Shown: in pieces, positions 17,552-23,980 of the stretch
How the letters are laid out: every line of letters begins with the position of its first letter
Position numbering within the stretch: position 1 is the stretch's first letter
Position numbers and translations under genes: made by a program
The notes under the pieces: generated by a model
Database searches by the model: none
What the model was told of the DNA's origin: nothing
Seen by the model: only the letters and a program-made list of their open reading frames with translations
DNA from: Polaromonas sp. AET17H-212
GTDB lineage: Bacteria > Pseudomonadota > Gammaproteobacteria > Burkholderiales > Burkholderiaceae_C
DNA: 64,000 bases
Direction: 5' to 3'
NCBI RefSeq assembly: GCF_002379085.1
Contig: NZ_NBZW01000001.1
Location: forward strand, 372,001 to 436,000

Positions 17552-18682
17552 ATGACCGACAAAATCATTCCCATCGCAGACATCCGTTACGCCGCGCGCG
17601 TGCCGCACATCCCTGCCCGGTTGCAGGCACCCACCGGGATGTTGGCCGACACGCTGGCCCGGCCGCTGCACGACCTGCGCATCAGCGTGACCGACCGCTG
17701 CAACTTCCGTTGCAGCTACTGCATGCCCAGCGAAGTCTTCAACAAGGACTATGCGTTTTTGCCGCAGACCTCGCTGCTCAGTTTTGAAGAGATCACGCGC
17801 CTGACGAAAATTTTCGTCGCGCACGGTGTCGAGAAAATCCGGCTGACCGGCGGCGAACCGCTGCTGCGCAAGCACCTGGAGGTGCTGATCGGGATGCTGG
17901 CGCAGCTCAAGACGCCACAGGGCAAACCGCTGGACATCACCCTGACGACCAACGGCTCGCTGCTGGTCAAAAAGGCCCAGGCCCTGAAAGACGCCGGCTT
18001 GCAGCGCGTCACCGTGAGCCTGGACGCGCTGGACGACGCGGTGTTCCGGCGCATGAACGATGTGGATTTTCCGGTCGCCGACGTGCTCAAGGGCATCGAG
18101 GTCGCGCACAAGGTGGGCCTGGCGCCCATCAAGGTCAACATGGTGGTCAAACGCGGCACCAACGATGCCGAGATCCTGCCCATGGCCCGGCACTTTCGCC
18201 ACTCGGGCGTGGTGCTGCGTTTTATCGAATACATGGACGTCGGCGCCACCAACGGCTGGCGCATGGACGAGGTGATGCCCTCGGCCGAGGTCATCGATCG
18301 CCTGCAGCAGGAGTTTGCGCTCGACGCCATCGACCCCAACTACCTGGGGGAAACCGCCGAACGCTGGCGTTACACCGACGGCGGCGGCGAGATCGGCGTG
18401 ATCAGCAGCGTGACCAAGGCCTTTTGCGGCGACTGCAACCGGGCCCGCCTGTCCACCGAAGGCAAGCTGTTTTTATGCCTGTTCGCCCACCAGGGCCACG
18501 ACCTGCGCGCCCTGCTGCGCGACAGCCACTATTCGGACGAGCAGATTTCCGGCGCCGTCGCCCACATCTGGCAGCGCCGCGACGACCGGTATTCGGAGCT
18601 GCGCGCGGCCCTGCCGCCGGATGTGGCCGTGCCGGGCGCCGAGGGAAACAAGCGTGTCGAGATGAGTTACATAGGCGGCTAG
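17552..18682 (+). CDS. moaA: GTP 3',8-cyclase (molybdenum cofactor biosynthesis protein A)
   Basis: A radical SAM enzyme that starts molybdopterin synthesis by rearranging GTP to 3',8-cyclo-7,8-dihydro-GTP. The SAM cluster cysteines are C50, C54 and C57 ([16 protein letters not shown]). The second cluster is [12 protein letters not shown] with a further Cys at KLFLCLF. The C-terminus ends in the required Gly-Gly (SYIGG). It has 376 residues, with about 30 extra N-terminal residues compared with the shortest MoaA. It is the first of moaA-mobA-moeA on the plus strand, with a 12-bp gap to mobA. Confidence 0.97.
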
Positions 18683-18694
18683 GCCGGAAAACGA

Positions 18695-19327
18695 ATGATT
18701 GACACGATAGACGGCGCAGAAATCACCGGCATCATCCTTGCCGGCGGACGCGGCTCGCGCATGGGTGGCGCCGACAAGGGCCTGCAAAGCTTCAACGGCG
18801 TGCCGCTGGCGCTGCACACCCTGCTGCGGCTGTCGCCGCAGGTCGGCGAGGTGATGGTCAATGCCAACCGCAACCTCGCGGCCTACGAATCGTTTGGCGT
18901 GCCGGTCTGGCCCGACGCGGCCGGGCTCGGCGAGTTTTCGGGCCCGCTGGCCGGCTTTCTGACCGGGCTGGAGCGCTGCGAGACGCCCTACCTGGTGACC
19001 GTGCCCTGCGACACCCCGTTGTTCAGCGAGGACCTGGTCGCCCGCTTGGCCGAAGCCATGGTGCGCGAGGATGCCGACATCGCCGTGGTGGCCGCCCCCG
19101 AGGAAGATGGCCAGTTGCGCGCGCAGCCGGTCTTCTGCCTGCTGCGCACCCGCCTGCTGGAGAGCCTGATGCTGTTCACCGCCGGCGGCGGCCGCAAGAT
19201 CGATGCGTGGACGGCGCAGCACAAAACCGTGCTCGTGCCCTTCAACCTGCCGGGCGACGACCCGCGCGCCTTCTTCAACGCCAACACGCTGGCCGAGTTG
19301 CACCAACTCGAAGCCCTGCGCCCGTGA
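18695..19327 (+). CDS. mobA: Molybdenum cofactor guanylyltransferase
   Basis: Joins GMP to molybdopterin to make the MGD form of the cofactor. It has 210 residues. The nucleotidyltransferase signature is [17 protein letters not shown] at residues 14-30, and the metal-binding Asp sits in VPCDTPLFS. It lies 12 bp after moaA. The stop overlaps the moeA start by GTGA. This implies DMSO-reductase-type molybdoenzymes elsewhere in the genome. Confidence 0.95.
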
Positions 19328-20658
19328 AGTCCATCGCCCAGATCGCCGCCGAACTCCAGGGCTACGATCCGCAGGCGCTGTCCGCCGCGGATGTGCTGCA
19401 GTTTTTGTCCCGGCTGGTGGAACCGGTGCAGGAGGTCGTGGAACTGCCGCTGTTCGAGGCGCTGGGCCGCGTGCTGGCGGCCGACGTGGTGTCGCCGTTT
19501 GACGTGCCGCCCCACGACAACTCGGCCATGGATGGGTATGCCTTCGCTGGCGCCCAGCTTGCTGCGGGAACGGCGCTGACCCTGAAAGTCGTGGGCACGG
19601 CGCTGGCCGGCAAAGCCTGGCAGGGCACGGTCGAGGCCGGCGAGTGTGTGAAGATCATGACCGGCGCCATCATGCCGGCCGGGCTGGACACCGTGGTGCC
19701 GCAGGAATTTGCCAGCGTTCAGGGCGACCGCATCACCCTCCCCGCGCAACTGCTGAGCCCCGGCGACAACCGCCGCCTGCGTGGTGAAGACCTCATGCAA
19801 GGCCGGCCGGCGCTATCAAAAGGTGAGCCTTTGACGCCCGCCCGCCTTGGGCTGGCGGCCTCATTGGGCTTGAAAACCGTGGCCACCCGGCGGCCGCTGC
19901 GCGTGGCCTACTTTTCCACCGGCGATGAAATCTTGTCGCTGGGCGAGGCGCCGCGCGAAGGTGCGGTCTACGACAGCAACCGCTACACGGTGTTCGGCAT
20001 GCTGACGCGGCTGGGTTGCGAGGTGATCGACATGGGGGTGGTGCGCGACGACCCGGCCCTGCTGGAGGCCGCGTTCGGCAACGCAGCCGCACAGGCCGAT
20101 GCCATCATCACTTCCGGCGGCGTCAGTGTCGGCGAGGCCGACTACACCAAGGCCATGATGAAAAAACTCGGCGACGTGGCCTTCTGGAAAATTGCCATGC
20201 GTCCCGGGCGGCCGATGGCGGTGGGCCGGATCTCTCAAGCCAAATCGGCCTCCAGCCCAATAGATGCGGGCGAGAGCCGCTTCCAAAAAAATAGCAATCC
20301 GAATGGCGCCATCCTGTTCGGCCTGCCCGGCAACCCGGTCGCGGTAATGGTCACTTTTCTGGCTTTTGTGCGTCCGGCCCTGCTGCAGATGATGGGCAAC
20401 ACGGCCCCGGCTCCACCGCTGCTCAGGGCCCGCAGCCTGGAGCCCATGCGCAAGAAACCGGGCCGCACCGAGTACCAGCGCGGCTGGGTGTCCACCGCCG
20501 CCGACGGTTCACTGCAGGTCAAGACGACCGGCAACCAGGGCTCGGGGGTGCTCAGTTCCATGGCCCAGGCCAATGGCCTGATCGTGCTGCACCATGCGCA
20601 GGGCAGCGTGGCCGTGGGTGAGGACGTCGACGTGATGATGTTCGAGGGCGCGATCTAA
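19324..20658 (+). CDS. moeA: Molybdopterin molybdenumtransferase, with an in-frame repeat insertion
   Basis: Inserts molybdate into adenylylated molybdopterin. The start is GTG at 19324, overlapping the mobA stop; 444 residues result. Family motifs are [15 protein letters not shown] near residue 60, the GE.LMTGA-type [37 protein letters not shown], and [14 protein letters not shown]. Between [14 protein letters not shown] and [10 protein letters not shown] there are about 23 extra residues (roughly 303-326, rich in Ser, Ala and Asn). They are encoded by a copy of repeat family A (20232-20299). The frame is kept, so the protein is probably active with a loop enlarged near the active site. Confidence 0.95.
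20232..20299 (-). repeat. Repeat family A, copy A4, inside moeA
   Basis: On the minus strand TGGGCTGGAGGCCGATTTGG then CTTGAGA, preceded by ATTGCTATTTTTTTGG. It is translated in frame as a Ser/Ala/Asn-rich loop of MoeA. Confidence 0.85.
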
Positions 20659-20742: not shown

Positions 20743-21729
20743 TTACTGAGCCCGTGCGACCGACTGCACCGGCCGCTTTTCCAGCGTCCACTGGAGCATG
20801 GAGCCGTCATACAGCCGGGTCTGCTTGTTGCCCAGAATTTCAGACATCACAAACCAGGCACCGGAAGCGAGGTGACCGGTATTGCAGTAAGTGATGGCAG
20901 GCGCCTGCGGATCAACGCCGCTCATCTTCAAGACGTCACGGTAGGTGTTTGCGGCCAGCATGCGCGTGGCGTCGCCGCCTTCGGTGGTCAGCAGCTCGGA
21001 CGACACATTCTTCGCGCCAGGGATGTGGCCGTAGGCACCGACGGTGCTGCGCTTGCTCAGCCCCAGGTACATGGAGGTATTGCGCGCATCGACCAGTTGC
21101 GCCGACTTGGTGTTCATGGCTTTTTCGACATCCTCGGAACTGGCCATGAGTTCGGCCGTGCGATCGGCCTTTGCTGCCCAGTTGCCCTCGTTGACCTTGG
21201 CCGGCGCCACGCTGACCTCGCGGCCTTCGGCCAGCCAGGCGGCGGTGCCGCCGTTGACGATGGCCACATTGTCTTCACCGTAGACCTTGAACTGCCAGTA
21301 CAGGCGCGCGGCATCGTTGAAGTCCACCGGTTCCATGCCGGCGGCGACGATGACGATGGGACGGCCGGCCTGCACGCCCCACTGGCGCGCCAGCTTCTCG
21401 AAATCCGCGCGCTCGGGAATCATGGCGCTGACCTTGTTGCCGCCCATCATGCGATCAACGCGCACTTTCTTGTTGTCCACCGGCGTGGCATCCGCAATGT
21501 GGCCGCCCAGTTCGACCAGGAATTTCTTGCCGGTCTTCTTGTCGGTCTCGAACTGCGGCGCGAGCGTGAAGGATTTCTGGCTCGGACGCACGTCCAGCAC
21601 CGTGACTTCCGCCTTGTTCTTGGCCAGCCACTCGCCATCAACCACCGGGCCAGGCACCTGCAGGGCCCAGCTCCATGGGGCCAGCCCGAGCAGGGCAAGG
21701 CCCGCGAGGTAACGAATTTGCGTTTTCAT
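20743..21729 (-). CDS. Periplasmic tandem-rhodanese sulfurtransferase (SseA-like)
   Basis: A 328-residue exported protein (signal peptide ending at WSWA) with two rhodanese domains. The N-terminal domain lacks the active Cys: its loop reads VAAGMEPVDFND. The C-terminal domain has the active loop YCNTGHLAS. Such proteins move sulfane sulfur from thiosulfate or a persulfide to an acceptor. A stretch of about 30 residues between the first strand and the VSAMIP segment is longer than in cytosolic SseA. It is the last gene of the five-gene minus-strand operon beginning with two YeeE/YedE genes, 11 bp behind the DUF6969-like gene. A periplasmic role in thiosulfate or polysulfide handling is likely. 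Confidence 0.88.
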   Translation of the reverse strand: MKTQIRYLAGLALLGLAPWSWALQVPGPVVDGEWLAKNKAEVTVLDVRPSQKSFTLAPQFETDKKTGKKFLVELGGHIADATPVDNKKVRVDRMMGGNKVSAMIPERADFEKLARQWGVQAGRPIVIVAAGMEPVDFNDAARLYWQFKVYGEDNVAIVNGGTAAWLAEGREVSVAPAKVNEGNWAAKADRTAELMASSEDVEKAMNTKSAQLVDARNTSMYLGLSKRSTVGAYGHIPGAKNVSSELLTTEGGDATRMLAANTYRDVLKMSGVDPQAPAITYCNTGHLASGAWFVMSEILGNKQTRLYDGSMLQWTLEKRPVQSVARAQ

Positions 21730-21740
21730 CTTGATCTCCT

Positions 21741-22394
21741 TCAGTTGTGTTGACTTGAAACCTGACCTTGCAGCTCGACTGCATCCTGGGGCCAGTCAAT
21801 GGGGAACGAACTCCATACGGCAATCTGCCGGTTTTCCCAGGCCGACTTGCGGCTGGCCTGGTGATGTTCGCAATGCCTGGCAAGGCCCTCATCACGGGCC
21901 AGCAGCATGTCGTGCAAGGGGGCGGCATAGACCCGCACCATGTCGGCCAGCCAAAGCGCCACGCCGGCCAGCGGGCCGCGCAGACGCAGTTGCAGGTCGT
22001 TCAGGCCTTGCGCCATCTGGCGCGCAGCCATCCAGCGCTCCCCGGTCACCCACCGGTTGGTGGCAAACCAGGTCAGGGGCGTGCCACGGGCATCGAGTGA
22101 CAGTCCGGCCAGATGCGAAAGCTGCCCTTGCGGATCGCGCCGGAACAGGTGAATGTGCCCATGCTCCTGGGGATGACGGGCGCCACCGTCCCGACTGTCG
22201 CCATGCGCATGGTAGTAAAACTGCCAGCGTCCGGTGACATCCACCGCATCGCTTGCCGGGTAATGCCGCCAGGCTTCAAAGCACTGAGTACGCCCAATGA
22301 AAGGATGCAGGAGGGAGCGCCCCCGTCGGGCCAGCGCCAACTGGCGCGCCAACGCAGAGCGGGCCGCCTCCTGCCTGGTGTCCCCGCCGGCCAT
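21741..22394 (-). CDS. DUF6969-like conserved protein in a sulfur operon
   Basis: A 217-residue cytoplasmic protein without signal or membrane segment. Recognisable conserved pieces are FEAWRHYPASDAVD, FYYHAHGD, and EHGHIHLFRR with LTWFATNRWVTGERW. The His-rich EHGHIHLF motif and YYHAH look like metal ligands, but no reaction is known. I chose ATG 22394 (MAGGDTRQEAAR); it lies 11 bp after the stop of the NPCA-repeat gene, while the longer frame would overlap that gene by over 100 bp. It is followed 11 bp on by the rhodanese. The family name is from memory. Confidence 0.65.
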   Translation of the reverse strand: MAGGDTRQEAARSALARQLALARRGRSLLHPFIGRTQCFEAWRHYPASDAVDVTGRWQFYYHAHGDSRDGGARHPQEHGHIHLFRRDPQGQLSHLAGLSLDARGTPLTWFATNRWVTGERWMAARQMAQGLNDLQLRLRGPLAGVALWLADMVRVYAAPLHDMLLARDEGLARHCEHHQASRKSAWENRQIAVWSSFPIDWPQDAVELQGQVSSQHN

Positions 22395-22405
22395 GACAAT
22401 CCTGA

Positions 22406-22708
22406 TTACCTGGTTTTCCCGGCGCAGGGGTTGTCGCTGCTTTTCTTGCGGCTGACGCCCGCGCACGGGTTGGCATCGTCCTTGTTGGCACGCCGGCGCT
22501 TGGCCGCACACGGGTTGCCAGCGCAGGGGTTGTCCGCCTTGCCTGCGCGCTTTTTGGCGGCACAGGGATTGGCAGCGGCACAGGGCGCGGAAGCCGCCTT
22601 GGCAGGCGCGTCGGCCGCCGCCAGTGCAGCCGGAGCCACCGGCACGGTCAGCAGGGTCATGGCCAGGGCCGACACCAGCGAGCCCAGATTGGCGCGAGAA
22701 CTTTTCAT
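22406..22708 (-). CDS. Small secreted cysteine protein with NPCA repeats
   Basis: A 100-residue precursor. The signal peptide ends at VAPAALA. The mature part of about 68 residues holds six cysteines, each in a Pro-Cys-Ala unit (SAPCAA, ANPCAAKK, DNPCAGNPCAAKRR, ANPCAG, DNPCAGK), separated by Lys/Arg-rich spacers. There are no aromatic residues in the mature part, so it is probably disordered. It could bind soft metals (Cu, Zn) or carry sulfane sulfur on its thiols. It sits between YeeE/YedE transporter genes and a periplasmic rhodanese. AAGGAG lies seven bases upstream of ATG 22708 (another ATG at 22711). I do not recognise a named family. Confidence 0.75.
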   Translation of the reverse strand: MKSSRANLGSLVSALAMTLLTVPVAPAALAAADAPAKAASAPCAAANPCAAKKRAGKADNPCAGNPCAAKRRRANKDDANPCAGVSRKKSSDNPCAGKTR

Positions 22709-22747
22709 CATCAAACTCCTTGAAAAAAACAATGGCGTGACGTGGGG

Positions 22748-23326
22748 TCAGGCCGCGCCGCGTTGCCGCGCCCGGCGCTCAAACCAGCCACCGAGAAAAA
22801 ATACGCCGACCGCAGCGGCCACCAGAACCGCCAGCACCAGCCATTCCGGAACCCCCAGCGCCTCCGGCAGGCGATCGCCCTTGGTCAATTCACCGGCGGT
22901 AGTGAGCGGGTCCAGCCATGGAAACAGGCTGGCAAAGGCAAACGTGCCGATCAGAATCCCCCCAAAAAACACCAGGGCATCGATCCGGCCCGTCATCACC
23001 CCCACCGCCGAGGTGCCCGGGCAGTAACCGCCCACGGCGAAACCCGCACCGATCAATGCGCCACCTGCAGCAACAGCCCACAGGTAGGGAGCCGGAACAT
23101 AGATGGAAGCAGCCTCCACCCAGCCAGCCAGCTCGAGCACGTAAATGCCGACCGCCGCAAAAACAATGGCGGTGAACATGACCTTGAACACGGACCAGTC
23201 GGTCAGGCGAAATTGCGCCGTCAGCTTGCAGCCGCTTCCAAAACCGGCGCGCTCCAGCACAAACCCAAAACCGAAACCAAGCAGCACGCCCACCAGGGGG
23301 CCGCTTGCAGCCATCAGAGCATTCAT
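22748..23326 (-). CDS. YeeE/YedE-family sulfur-compound transporter, second half-protein
   Basis: A 192-residue inner-membrane protein with about five helices. It carries the family's conserved Cys motif GGYCPGTSAVGVMTGR (residues about 95-110) and a second Cys in AGFGSGCKLTAQF near residue 31. In thiosulfate importers of this family such Cys line the route of the ion. The ATG at 23326 overlaps the stop of the preceding gene (ATGA). Longer frames read in from 23611 are out of place because they cover that gene. It ends with a basic tail (FERRARQRGAA) in the cytoplasm. Confidence 0.88.
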   Translation of the reverse strand: MNALMAASGPLVGVLLGFGFGFVLERAGFGSGCKLTAQFRLTDWSVFKVMFTAIVFAAVGIYVLELAGWVEAASIYVPAPYLWAVAAGGALIGAGFAVGGYCPGTSAVGVMTGRIDALVFFGGILIGTFAFASLFPWLDPLTTAGELTKGDRLPEALGVPEWLVLAVLVAAAVGVFFLGGWFERRARQRGAA

Positions 23327-23856
23327 TTCACACCTCCACCGGTCAGGCGCGAGACAATCAGACCGGCCACAAAAAATGCGCCAAGAAATACAAACCCTGC
23401 CACCCCCAGCACAGCCGAGCCGGACAAGCCCAACCCACTGGTGCACCCGGCCGCAATGCGCGCACCGAAACCGGCGAGAATGCCGCCTGCCAGCGCCTTG
23501 AGCAGGCGCCCGCTTCGCCCGGAAGAACCGGCCCCCTCGATCCGCAAGGCCACACGTCCGGCCAGAACCGCGGAAACCAGCGCGCCGATGAACACCCCCA
23601 GCACCTGCCATGTGATCCAGGATGACAGCACCGGGCCGCCCTCCAGCATGGGGCCCAGGTAATCGTTGGCCTGCGTCCAGCCAGGCACGGCTGCATCGCC
23701 CAGCCAGGCGCTCAGCCGCGTCGTGAAACCCGTCGCCCCCAAGCCATGCCCGGTCAGAACAAAAGTCATCAGCAGCACAACCCCGAGTGCCAGCCCTGCG
23801 GCCCAGGCCGGCCAGTAGGGCCGCTGGGGGAGTTCACATTCGTTCATGATTTGCAT
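23323..23856 (-). CDS. YeeE/YedE-family sulfur-compound transporter, first half-protein
   Basis: A 177-residue membrane protein with four or five helices. The conserved motif GCTSGLGLSGSAVLG (residues about 136-150) is the GC.SG signature of the family. With the next gene it makes a two-part transporter, probably for thiosulfate or another reduced sulfur species. GAAGGA lies seven bases before ATG 23856. It is the first gene of an operon running to the rhodanese at 20743. A promoter is predicted at 23909-23936, with two dyads just upstream of it. Confidence 0.88.
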   Translation of the reverse strand: MQIMNECELPQRPYWPAWAAGLALGVVLLMTFVLTGHGLGATGFTTRLSAWLGDAAVPGWTQANDYLGPMLEGGPVLSSWITWQVLGVFIGALVSAVLAGRVALRIEGAGSSGRSGRLLKALAGGILAGFGARIAAGCTSGLGLSGSAVLGVAGFVFLGAFFVAGLIVSRLTGGGVK

Positions 23857-23908
23857 TGATTGTTCCTTCTATATTTATTCCTGATTACCGATCAGAAGCG
23901 TTGGCTGC

Positions 23909-23936
23909 ACTGTAGACAAAGCCTGAGAAAGATCAA
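23909..23936 (-). promoter_or_regulatory. Predicted promoter of the YedE-rhodanese operon
   Basis: On the minus strand TTGATC (23936-23931), a 16-bp spacer and TACAGT (23914-23909) lie about 50 bp upstream of the first YeeE/YedE start. The -35 matches 4 of 6 and the -10 matches 4 of 6 consensus bases. Confidence 0.45.
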
Positions 23937-23942
23937 GTTCAA

Positions 23943-23980
23943 TTGAGCTTCACACGCTCAAACTTATTGCTAATATAAGT
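23943..23980. promoter_or_regulatory. Two adjacent dyads upstream of the YedE operon promoter
   Basis: TTGAGC-N7-GCTCAA (23943-23961) is followed directly by ACTTAT-N7-ATAAGT (23962-23980). Both have 6-bp perfect arms and the same 19-bp length. They look like binding sites for a dimeric regulator upstream of the -35; ArsR-type sulfide or persulfide sensors bind such AT-rich dyads. No regulator gene is adjacent. Confidence 0.5.

What the first reader, a model, noticed from the sequence alone, without database searches (positions are those of the whole stretch)
20743..23980. Five-gene sulfur operon with a secreted NPCA-repeat cysteine protein
Two YeeE/YedE half-transporters, a 100-residue exported protein with six Pro-Cys-Ala units, a DUF6969-like protein and a periplasmic tandem rhodanese are packed with gaps of -4, 39, 11 and 11 bp. 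The mature NPCA protein has no aromatic residues and basic spacers between its cysteines, which suits a thiol carrier or soft-metal sponge rather than an enzyme. Together they could form a periplasmic relay: the rhodanese makes a persulfide, the NPCA protein holds or buffers it, and YedE imports it. The transporter and rhodanese roles follow from their families; the relay is inference.
Basis: partly seen in the sequence, partly recalled or inferred. Interest (0 to 1): 0.72.

Follow-up and report, generated by a model that had tools for sequence, protein, structure and literature searches.

The report
Secreted cysteine-repeat protein with DUF6969 partner
A small exported protein built of repeated Asn-Pro-Cys units is encoded, in this and many other bacteria, beside an uncharacterised protein with no recognised fold and often beside a sulfur importer and a sulfur-transfer enzyme, which points to an undescribed system for handling reactive sulfur or soft metals in the cell envelope.

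Summary
In detail: five genes, the stated gaps, six Pro-Cys-Ala units, no aromatics. Around DUF6969 genes elsewhere, secreted Cys-repeat proteins recur: 98 of 120 loci (window included, some labels by eye), 73 of the 98 with YeeE or rhodanese within 5 kb; the order YeeE > Cys protein > DUF6969 > rhodanese in 53 of 110. That sample is anchored on DUF6969. In the class sample only 7 of 20 genomes with an NPC protein have YeeE or rhodanese near it, while 14 of 20 have DUF6969.

So the closest partner is DUF6969, not the sulfur genes. Repeat type follows the DUF6969 tree. DUF6969 has invariant His/Glu residues and confident models without a PDB match. One NPC protein without DUF6969 sits in a bufferin operon beside its MNIO maturase. 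I propose that DUF6969 is a cytoplasmic partner, probably a metal-dependent maturase, of exported multi-Cys carriers of sulfane sulfur or soft metals.

Shown: module, recurrence, pairing. Inferred: chemistry, ligand, relay. Against: 6 of those 20 genomes lack DUF6969; 22 of 120 loci lack a nearby Cys protein.

The parts
23323..23856 (-). YeeE/YedE half-transporter 1 (177 aa; C-terminal half of the family, PmpA-like), with AAGCTSGLG cysteine
   Evidence: PF04143 65.8 bits, profile positions 176-308 of 310; Cys context
22748..23326 (-). YeeE/YedE half-transporter 2 (192 aa; N-terminal half of the family, PmpB-like), with GSGCKLTAQF and GGYCPGTS cysteines
   Evidence: PF04143 54.0 bits, profile positions 2-149 of 310; Cys context
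22406..22708 (-). NPCA-repeat secreted protein, 100 aa
   Evidence: relatives
22418..22585 (-). Cys-repeat region of the NPCA protein: six Pro-Cys-Ala units (residues 42-97), five of them preceded by Asn, basic spacers
   Evidence: invariant NPC columns in A2
21741..22394 (-). DUF6969 protein (217 aa), no signal peptide seen by eye
   Evidence: PF22308 161.7 bits; model pLDDT 93.0, pTM 0.89
22143..22214 (-). YHxH ... EHGHxHxF block of DUF6969, the proposed metal site
   Evidence: invariant columns in 31 sequences; in 37 sequences the Tyr, the first His of HGH and the last Phe drop to nearly invariant, the other residues of the block stay invariant
20743..21729 (-). tandem rhodanese, 328 aa, signal-peptide-like N-terminus (by eye), single Cys
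   Evidence: PF00581, two stretches
20869..20886 (-). rhodanese active-site loop CNTGHL in the second domain; the first domain has no Cys

Best explanation
The operon encodes an envelope thiol system. (1) A Sec-exported, probably disordered protein carries regularly spaced Pro-Cys units and acts in the periplasm as a multi-site carrier/buffer for a soft ligand; in this operon most likely sulfane sulfur (persulfide, polysulfide), elsewhere perhaps soft metals. (2) DUF6969, a cytoplasmic protein with a His/Glu-rich site on an antiparallel sheet, is the usual partner of such proteins and most likely acts on the Cys repeats before export, as a metal-dependent maturase or metallochaperone. (3) The periplasmic rhodanese puts sulfur on, or takes it off, thiols. 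(4) The two YeeE/YedE halves together import the sulfur. Shown here: genes, order, recurrence, Cys protein-DUF6969 pairing. From the literature: YedE1E2 halves import zero-valent sulfur. Inferred: ligand, DUF6969 chemistry, the relay.
For: Rule-based Cys-repeat ORFs: 89 within 2.5 kb of DUF6969 (514 kb scanned) against 2 further out (716 kb) in the same 110 loci. Order YeeE > Cys > DUF6969 > rhodanese on one strand in 53 of 110. In 250 genomes of the order, 9 have an NPC protein by profile A2; 8 of these 9, the window's own included, are among the 17 with DUF6969 and lie within 250 bp of it (Fisher 6e-10). Repeat type tracks the DUF6969 tree: SPC-Leu type in 12 of 13 members of one clade (support 100; two labels by eye), KC type in one 6-member clade (support 88); NPC types occur with and without sulfur genes. 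The ninth genome has its NPC protein in a bufferin operon: MNIO_BufB 368 bits over cut-off 310, DUF2282, DUF2063, ECF sigma; L043 carries NPC + DUF6969 within 5 kb of relatives of MNIO, DUF2282 and DUF2063. Of 16 DUF6969 genomes without an adjacent Cys protein, 6 encode NPC proteins elsewhere. Sulfur: NPC and KC repeats are fused to SoxA/TsdA-type cytochromes. YedE1E2 imports zero-valent sulfur and needs its two Cys (PMC10812762, passages); PmpA/PmpB match the two halves of YeeE (PMC11582611, passages).
Against: No biochemical evidence of any kind. Profiles A2 and A3 were built mostly from Cys proteins that lie beside DUF6969, so the co-occurrence counts lean towards the pair. In the class sample 6 of 16 genomes whose NPC protein A3 found lack DUF6969, and 13 of 20 NPC-bearing genomes have no YeeE or rhodanese near. 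22 of 120 DUF6969 loci show no Cys protein nearby; of 16 genomes without an adjacent one, 10 gave no NPC hit (one of the ten, L123, has a CGAC-repeat ORF 1.8 kb away). Ligand undecided: L161 lies by MerA and MerT (above cut-off), L169 by a MerT-like protein (below cut-off). Enzyme activity of DUF6969 rests on conservation alone; the models' coordinates could not be inspected.
Confidence: 0.42

Rival explanations
1. One reading: the rhodanese makes a persulfide, the unmodified NPCA protein holds it, YedE imports it; DUF6969 is incidental or a small-molecule enzyme of sulfur metabolism.
For: Among DUF6969 loci the most frequent partners besides the Cys protein are rhodanese (69 of 121) and YeeE; fixed order; YedE1E2 takes up zero-valent sulfur; metallothionein-3 as a precedent for a Cys-rich protein binding sulfane sulfur (PMC12618007, start of abstract).
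Against: The Cys protein stays with DUF6969 where YeeE and rhodanese are absent (25 of 98 loci); 13 of 20 NPC-bearing class genomes have neither near the NPC gene; repeat type follows DUF6969 clades.
Confidence: 0.25
2. Soft-metal (Cu/Hg) buffer like bufferins; YeeE and rhodanese repair sulfur damage or handle metal sulfide.
For: NPC protein inside a bufferin operon (L158), bufferin-gene relatives beside NPC + DUF6969 (L043), MerA/MerT at L161, ECF sigma relatives near DUF6969 in 4 of 121 loci.
Against: These contexts are few; YeeE/rhodanese are far more frequent near DUF6969; none of the five window genes is a metal exporter or sensor.
Confidence: 0.2
3. The NPC protein is a structural or self-assembling envelope protein (disulfide-linked network), DUF6969 a folding factor.
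For: C. difficile CdeC has a six-fold NPC repeat and self-assembles (PMC7677010, title and passages); CcdA and thioredoxin relatives near 4 and 5 of 121 DUF6969 loci.
Against: Repeat number and spacers vary freely between relatives; the sulfur import genes are unexplained.
Confidence: 0.08

Closest known systems
Bufferins with MNIO maturase (PF05114, DUF2282, DUF2063)
   Same: Sec-signal, Cys-motif secreted protein encoded beside a cytoplasmic protein; some shared accessory genes (ECF sigma and zf-HC2 confirmed by Pfam; thioredoxin and CcdA by eye at L160); one NPC protein lies in a real bufferin operon.
   Different: The window operon has no MNIO and no DUF2063; the DUF6969 model (helices around an antiparallel sheet) has no PDB match; repeats are NPC, not DUF2282 or EGKCG.
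YedE1E2 / PmpAB zero-valent sulfur importer
   Same: Two adjacent half-size YeeE proteins that match the N- and C-terminal parts of the family profile and carry Cys in both.
   Different: Here followed by Cys-repeat protein, DUF6969 and rhodanese in one operon; no regulator or persulfide dioxygenase among the five genes.
SoxT / TsuA-TsuB (YeeE-YeeD) thiosulfate import
   Same: Same transporter family and Cys-relay idea.
   Different: Single-chain transporter and a TusA-like partner; here split halves and a periplasmic Cys-repeat protein.
Metallothionein-type thiol buffers
   Same: Small, Cys-rich, no aromatic residues (recalled for metallothioneins); MT-3 reported to bind sulfane sulfur (abstract start).
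   Different: Exported, each Cys in a Pro-Cys unit, no CxC or CC, paired with DUF6969.
C. difficile CdeC (NPC repeat)
   Same: Six-fold Asn-Pro-Cys repeat.
   Different: Spore exosporium protein of a Gram-positive; homology not tested.

Membership tests
Bufferin / MNIO RiPP system | MNIO maturase (PF05114) in the operon | tested here: not met
   No Pfam or NCBIfam MNIO match to the five window proteins at E <= 1; an MNIO relative found within 5 kb of DUF6969 only at L043 of 121 loci, by tblastn with one MNIO query
Bufferin / MNIO RiPP system | precursor belongs to a bufferin family (DUF2282, BufA2, EGKCG) | tested here: not met
   NPCA protein: BufA2 E 0.28, 11.4 bits against cut-off 60; no Pfam hit; the EGKCG profile was not at hand
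Bufferin / MNIO RiPP system | Sec signal peptide plus repeated Cys motif | tested here: inconclusive
   Repeated Cys motif met; signal peptide judged by eye only
RiPP (any kind) | post-translational modification of the precursor by the neighbouring enzyme | not testable with these tools
   needs mass spectrometry
YeeE/YedE half transporters (YedE1E2/PmpAB) | PF04143, two halves covering the two parts of the profile | tested here: met
YeeE/YedE half transporters (YedE1E2/PmpAB) | conserved Cys in each half | tested here: met
   AAGCTSGLG and GGYCPGTS; equivalence to the published Cys is by motif, not by structural alignment
Rhodanese | PF00581 domain and active-site Cys loop | tested here: met
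   two stretches; CNTGHL holds the only Cys
ExtH (selenite/tellurite operon rhodanese) | NF040901 above its cut-off | tested here: not met
   66.8 bits against 200
DUF6969 (PF22308) | Pfam match above gathering score | tested here: met
   161.7 bits against 27
Metallothionein | metal-thiolate clusters in the native protein | not testable with these tools
   needs protein chemistry

The most novel reading that the evidence does not exclude
DUF6969 founds a new family of metal-dependent maturases, unrelated to MNIO, that modify Pro-Cys / Lys-Cys repeat precursors in the cytoplasm; the products are exported as multi-site sulfane-sulfur (or soft-metal) carriers, and in the YeeE-rhodanese operons they feed a dedicated sulfur import line. 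MNIO and DUF6969 would be interchangeable solutions for the same class of secreted Cys-repeat precursor.
Probability: 0.3. Interest if true: 0.88.

Novelty: new variant of a known kind. Interest (0 to 1): 0.7.

Why it matters
DUF6969 is mentioned in none of the open-licence papers searched, and no PDB relative was found by sequence or fold. A repeat substrate next to a His-rich partner makes its activity directly testable by mass spectrometry. If it modifies Cys repeats, it adds a second enzyme family to the recently recognised field of exported Cys-rich RiPPs; if it does not, the operon still gives a periplasmic partner to the poorly understood YeeE/YedE sulfur importers.

Tried and rejected
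Single-sequence search for the NPCA protein in 250 order genomes found only the window's own and one weak hit, L009, rejected by eye: it lies among mobile-element-like genes and is not a Cys-repeat secreted protein. The profile of 20 relatives (A2) found 9 genomes, so the miss was one of sensitivity.

NCBIfam hits of the NPCA protein to acid-shock Asr (0.07) and BufA2 (0.28) were rejected as insignificant. PADLOC: nothing for two DUF6969 proteins. Foldseek against PDB gave no match at E <= 0.001 for either DUF6969 model (best 0.13 and 0.68); HemF appears three times in the second list at E 0.7-3.4 and TM 0.11-0.13 and was not taken as a lead. No MNIO-like fold appears in the 50 rows shown of either list.

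In the class search with A3 (20 of 369 genomes) I judged 16 to be real NPC proteins and set aside four by eye (G391, G430, G548, G574); G430 is a GKNGCKG-type protein beside an MNIO relative. A3 missed the NPC proteins of L045 and L053-L055, known; adding these four gives the 20 genomes of the summary. In the tree two of 122 rows, L092 and L122, were dropped for short DUF6969 segments; eight labels were then corrected by eye (L058, L060, L141, L163, L123, L140, L132, L041). L147 counts among the 53 strict-order loci through a Cys ORF in a wrong frame; its right frame has two NPC units.

Full report
What is there. The two YeeE genes are the C-terminal half (first gene) and the N-terminal half (second gene) of PF04143. 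The rhodanese has a single cysteine, in a CNTGHL loop of the second domain. The NPCA protein has six cysteines, each in Pro-Cys-Ala, and no aromatic or histidine residue. The window lies in a 4.65-Mb genome; the best named match of its DUF6969 is Polaromonas sp. AER18D-145, 88% identical.

Recurrence. DUF6969 was used as anchor because repeat proteins are hard to find by alignment: a single-sequence search in 250 order genomes gave only the window itself and a false hit. PF22308 occurs in 30 of 369 class genomes, 17 of 250 order genomes and 11 of 60 family genomes, and in none of the 14 control genomes. Small secreted Cys-repeat proteins turned up upstream of DUF6969. By a fixed rule (the same X-Pro-Cys trimer three times in 90 residues, or a short Cys repeat) 89 such ORFs lie within 2.5 kb of DUF6969 and 2 further away, in a larger amount of DNA (110 loci). 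The strict rule finds one within 1.2 kb upstream on the same strand in 57 of 80 named and 18 of 30 class-sample loci; with labels corrected by eye, 98 of 120 loci including the window have one at or near DUF6969.

The sulfur module. In one search the distances from DUF6969 are nearly constant: YeeE halves at about -1500 and -970, Cys protein at about -500, rhodanese at about +830, all on one strand; the full order is met in 53 of 110 loci. In the same-class loci L057-L060, L062-L067 and L069 a full-length YeeE takes the place of the two halves. A Sinorhizobium meliloti megaplasmid has rhodanese, YeeE, a Pro-Cys protein and DUF6969 in a row (L214). Within 5 kb of DUF6969, rhodanese relatives occur in 69 of 121 loci, YeeE half 1 in 52, half 2 in 53, full-length YeeE in 21. 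Of the 98 loci with a Cys protein, 73 have YeeE or rhodanese and 25 have neither. These loci were all found through DUF6969, and the 80 named ones are the best matches to the window's copy, so the share is inflated towards the window's type.

A less anchored count. In the class sample 20 genomes have an NPC protein: 16 found by profile A3 and four more that A3 missed (L045, L053-L055). YeeE or rhodanese lies near the NPC gene in 7 of these 20 (L040, L045, L053-L055, the window, L200), DUF6969 is in the genome of 14 of 20. A3 itself was built mostly from proteins without rhodanese beside them, and the four extra ones were known through DUF6969, so neither share is free of bias.

The pair. In the 250 order genomes the NPC profile A2 matches 9 genomes at E <= 0.001. 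Eight of them, the window's own included, are among the 17 DUF6969 genomes, each within 250 bp of DUF6969 (Fisher 6e-10). A2 was built only from DUF6969 neighbours, which favours this result. The ninth, G037, has the NPC protein in a bufferin operon: ECF sigma, NPC protein, DUF2282 protein, MNIO (MNIO_BufB 368 bits, cut-off 310) and DUF2063. In L043, NPC protein and DUF6969 stand within 5 kb of relatives of MNIO, DUF2282 and DUF2063. DUF6969 also pairs with other Cys repeats: SPC-Leu acidic types, KCGAC/KCAPKC types (including the second DUF6969 copy of the window's own genome, L056), and CCG or CAAT types. On the DUF6969 tree the SPC-Leu type fills one clade (12 of 13, support 100; two labels by eye) and the KC type another (6 rows, support 88), while NPC proteins occur with and without sulfur genes. 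Shared descent alone could produce that clustering, so it supports a lasting partnership but does not prove contact.

Limits of the pair. Six of the 16 class genomes found by A3 have no DUF6969. Three of the six NPC proteins are fused to a SoxA/TsdA-type cytochrome domain (L200, L201, L205), two more lie beside a cytochrome-like gene (L202, L203; by eye), one has neither (L204); no MNIO relative was found by tblastn in the six fetched stretches. So DUF6969 is not needed by every NPC protein. Conversely 22 of 120 DUF6969 loci have no Cys protein nearby, some at contig ends. Sixteen genomes without an adjacent, same-strand upstream Cys protein were searched whole (15 of the 22 loci, plus L123): 6 carry NPC proteins elsewhere and 10 gave no hit with A3.

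DUF6969. Thirty-one sequences share invariant Y62 H63 H65 E78 H79 G80 H81 H83 F85 H95 G105 N114 W116 V117 (window numbering from the codon before ATG); in 37 sequences H63, H65, E78, G80, H81, H83, H95, G105, N114 and W116 stay invariant (by matching positions). AlphaFold models of the window protein (pLDDT 93.0) and of L042 (92.4) are confident: helices around an antiparallel sheet, with the His residues at the strands 58-64, 80-87 and 93-101. That they face one side is my inference from alternation along the strands; coordinates could not be read. No PDB sequence relative at E <= 10 and no fold match at E <= 0.001. By eye DUF6969 has no signal peptide, which places it in the cytoplasm before export of its partner.

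Which ligand. For sulfur: the YeeE/rhodanese context of this operon; fusion of NPC and KC repeats to SoxA/TsdA-type cytochrome domains (Pfam for L041 and L050; tblastn and sequence for L163, L164, L166); and published work that YedE1E2 halves import zero-valent sulfur, need their cysteines and co-occur with rhodanese genes (PMC10812762, passages), that PmpA/PmpB correspond to the two halves of YeeE (PMC11582611, passages), and that YeeE passes thiosulfate along cysteines to a partner (PMC11073785, passages). For metal: the bufferin operon and L043, MerA/MerT at L161 and a MerT-like and an HMA protein at L169. Bufferin precursors with Sec signals are described as highly unusual among RiPP precursors (PMC12452194, passages). 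The window operon itself favours sulfur.

Mechanism, step by step. Genes, order, pairing: shown. Sulfur import by the halves: established for relatives, not for this protein. Rhodanese activity: family inference. Cys protein as carrier: inference. DUF6969 as maturase: inference from invariant His/Glu, cytoplasmic place, close partnership, and the MNIO swap in one genome. Confidence: module real 0.95; DUF6969 and Cys protein a functional pair 0.85; DUF6969 acts on the Cys protein 0.5; sulfane sulfur as the ligand in this operon 0.5.

Known or not. No paper in the held library mentions DUF6969 or PF22308. Searches for NPCA/NPC repeats, for YeeE with rhodanese and Cys-rich neighbours, for PmpA/PmpB and for bufferin with YedE and sulfur listed no paper whose title or abstract start describes this operon; the NPC-repeat listing led to CdeC of C. 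difficile. The library holds only open-licence papers. Not a bufferin system: no MNIO and no bufferin-family precursor in the window. It works like one in outline, with a different partner protein.

Noticed in passing
G000:C9:41919-42494 (L056:5947-7190): The window's own genome has a second DUF6969 with two small KCGAC-repeat secreted proteins upstream and no YeeE or rhodanese relative within 5 kb.
   Followed up: partly
L041, L050, L163, L164, L166; L200, L201, L205: NPC or KCAPKC repeats fused to SoxA/TsdA-type cytochrome c domains; the last three are in genomes without a DUF6969 match.
   Followed up: partly
L160, L163, L201, L202, L203, L205: A cytochrome-like protein with a recurrent 'FLxRHWxxPL..QG' start lies beside NPC proteins, with or without DUF6969 (by eye).
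   Followed up: no
L040:6713-7189, L095:638-1129, L142:4761-5312, L165:2879-3379: A small exported-looking protein 'VIELTQ..CQF..DCEAIN' recurs near NPC/DUF6969 loci; the L040 copy has no Pfam match at E <= 0.01.
   Followed up: no
L207, L210: Very long NPC-repeat proteins (33 and 53 Cys) with a similar C-terminal domain, which in L207 ends in a CxxCH motif; the DUF6969 of these genomes lies elsewhere.
   Followed up: no
L161, L169: DUF6969 with NPC or KCAPKC protein beside mercury-resistance-type genes (MerA and MerT above cut-off at L161, MerT-like below cut-off at L169).
   Followed up: partly
L214 (Sinorhizobium meliloti GR4 pRmeGR4d 639483-651950): Rhodanese-YeeE-ProCys protein-DUF6969 module on a megaplasmid of a genetically tractable species; the plasmid set has 154 records with a DUF6969 match, 92 of them Sinorhizobium, of which one neighbourhood was read.
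   Followed up: partly
L206: A GKNGCKGKNGC-repeat protein directly beside relatives of MNIO and DUF2063, found with the NPC profile.
   Followed up: no
window 17552-20658: Three genes on the plus strand, reading towards the rhodanese end of the operon, look like molybdenum-cofactor genes (MoaA, MobA, MoeA by recall, not tested).
   Followed up: no
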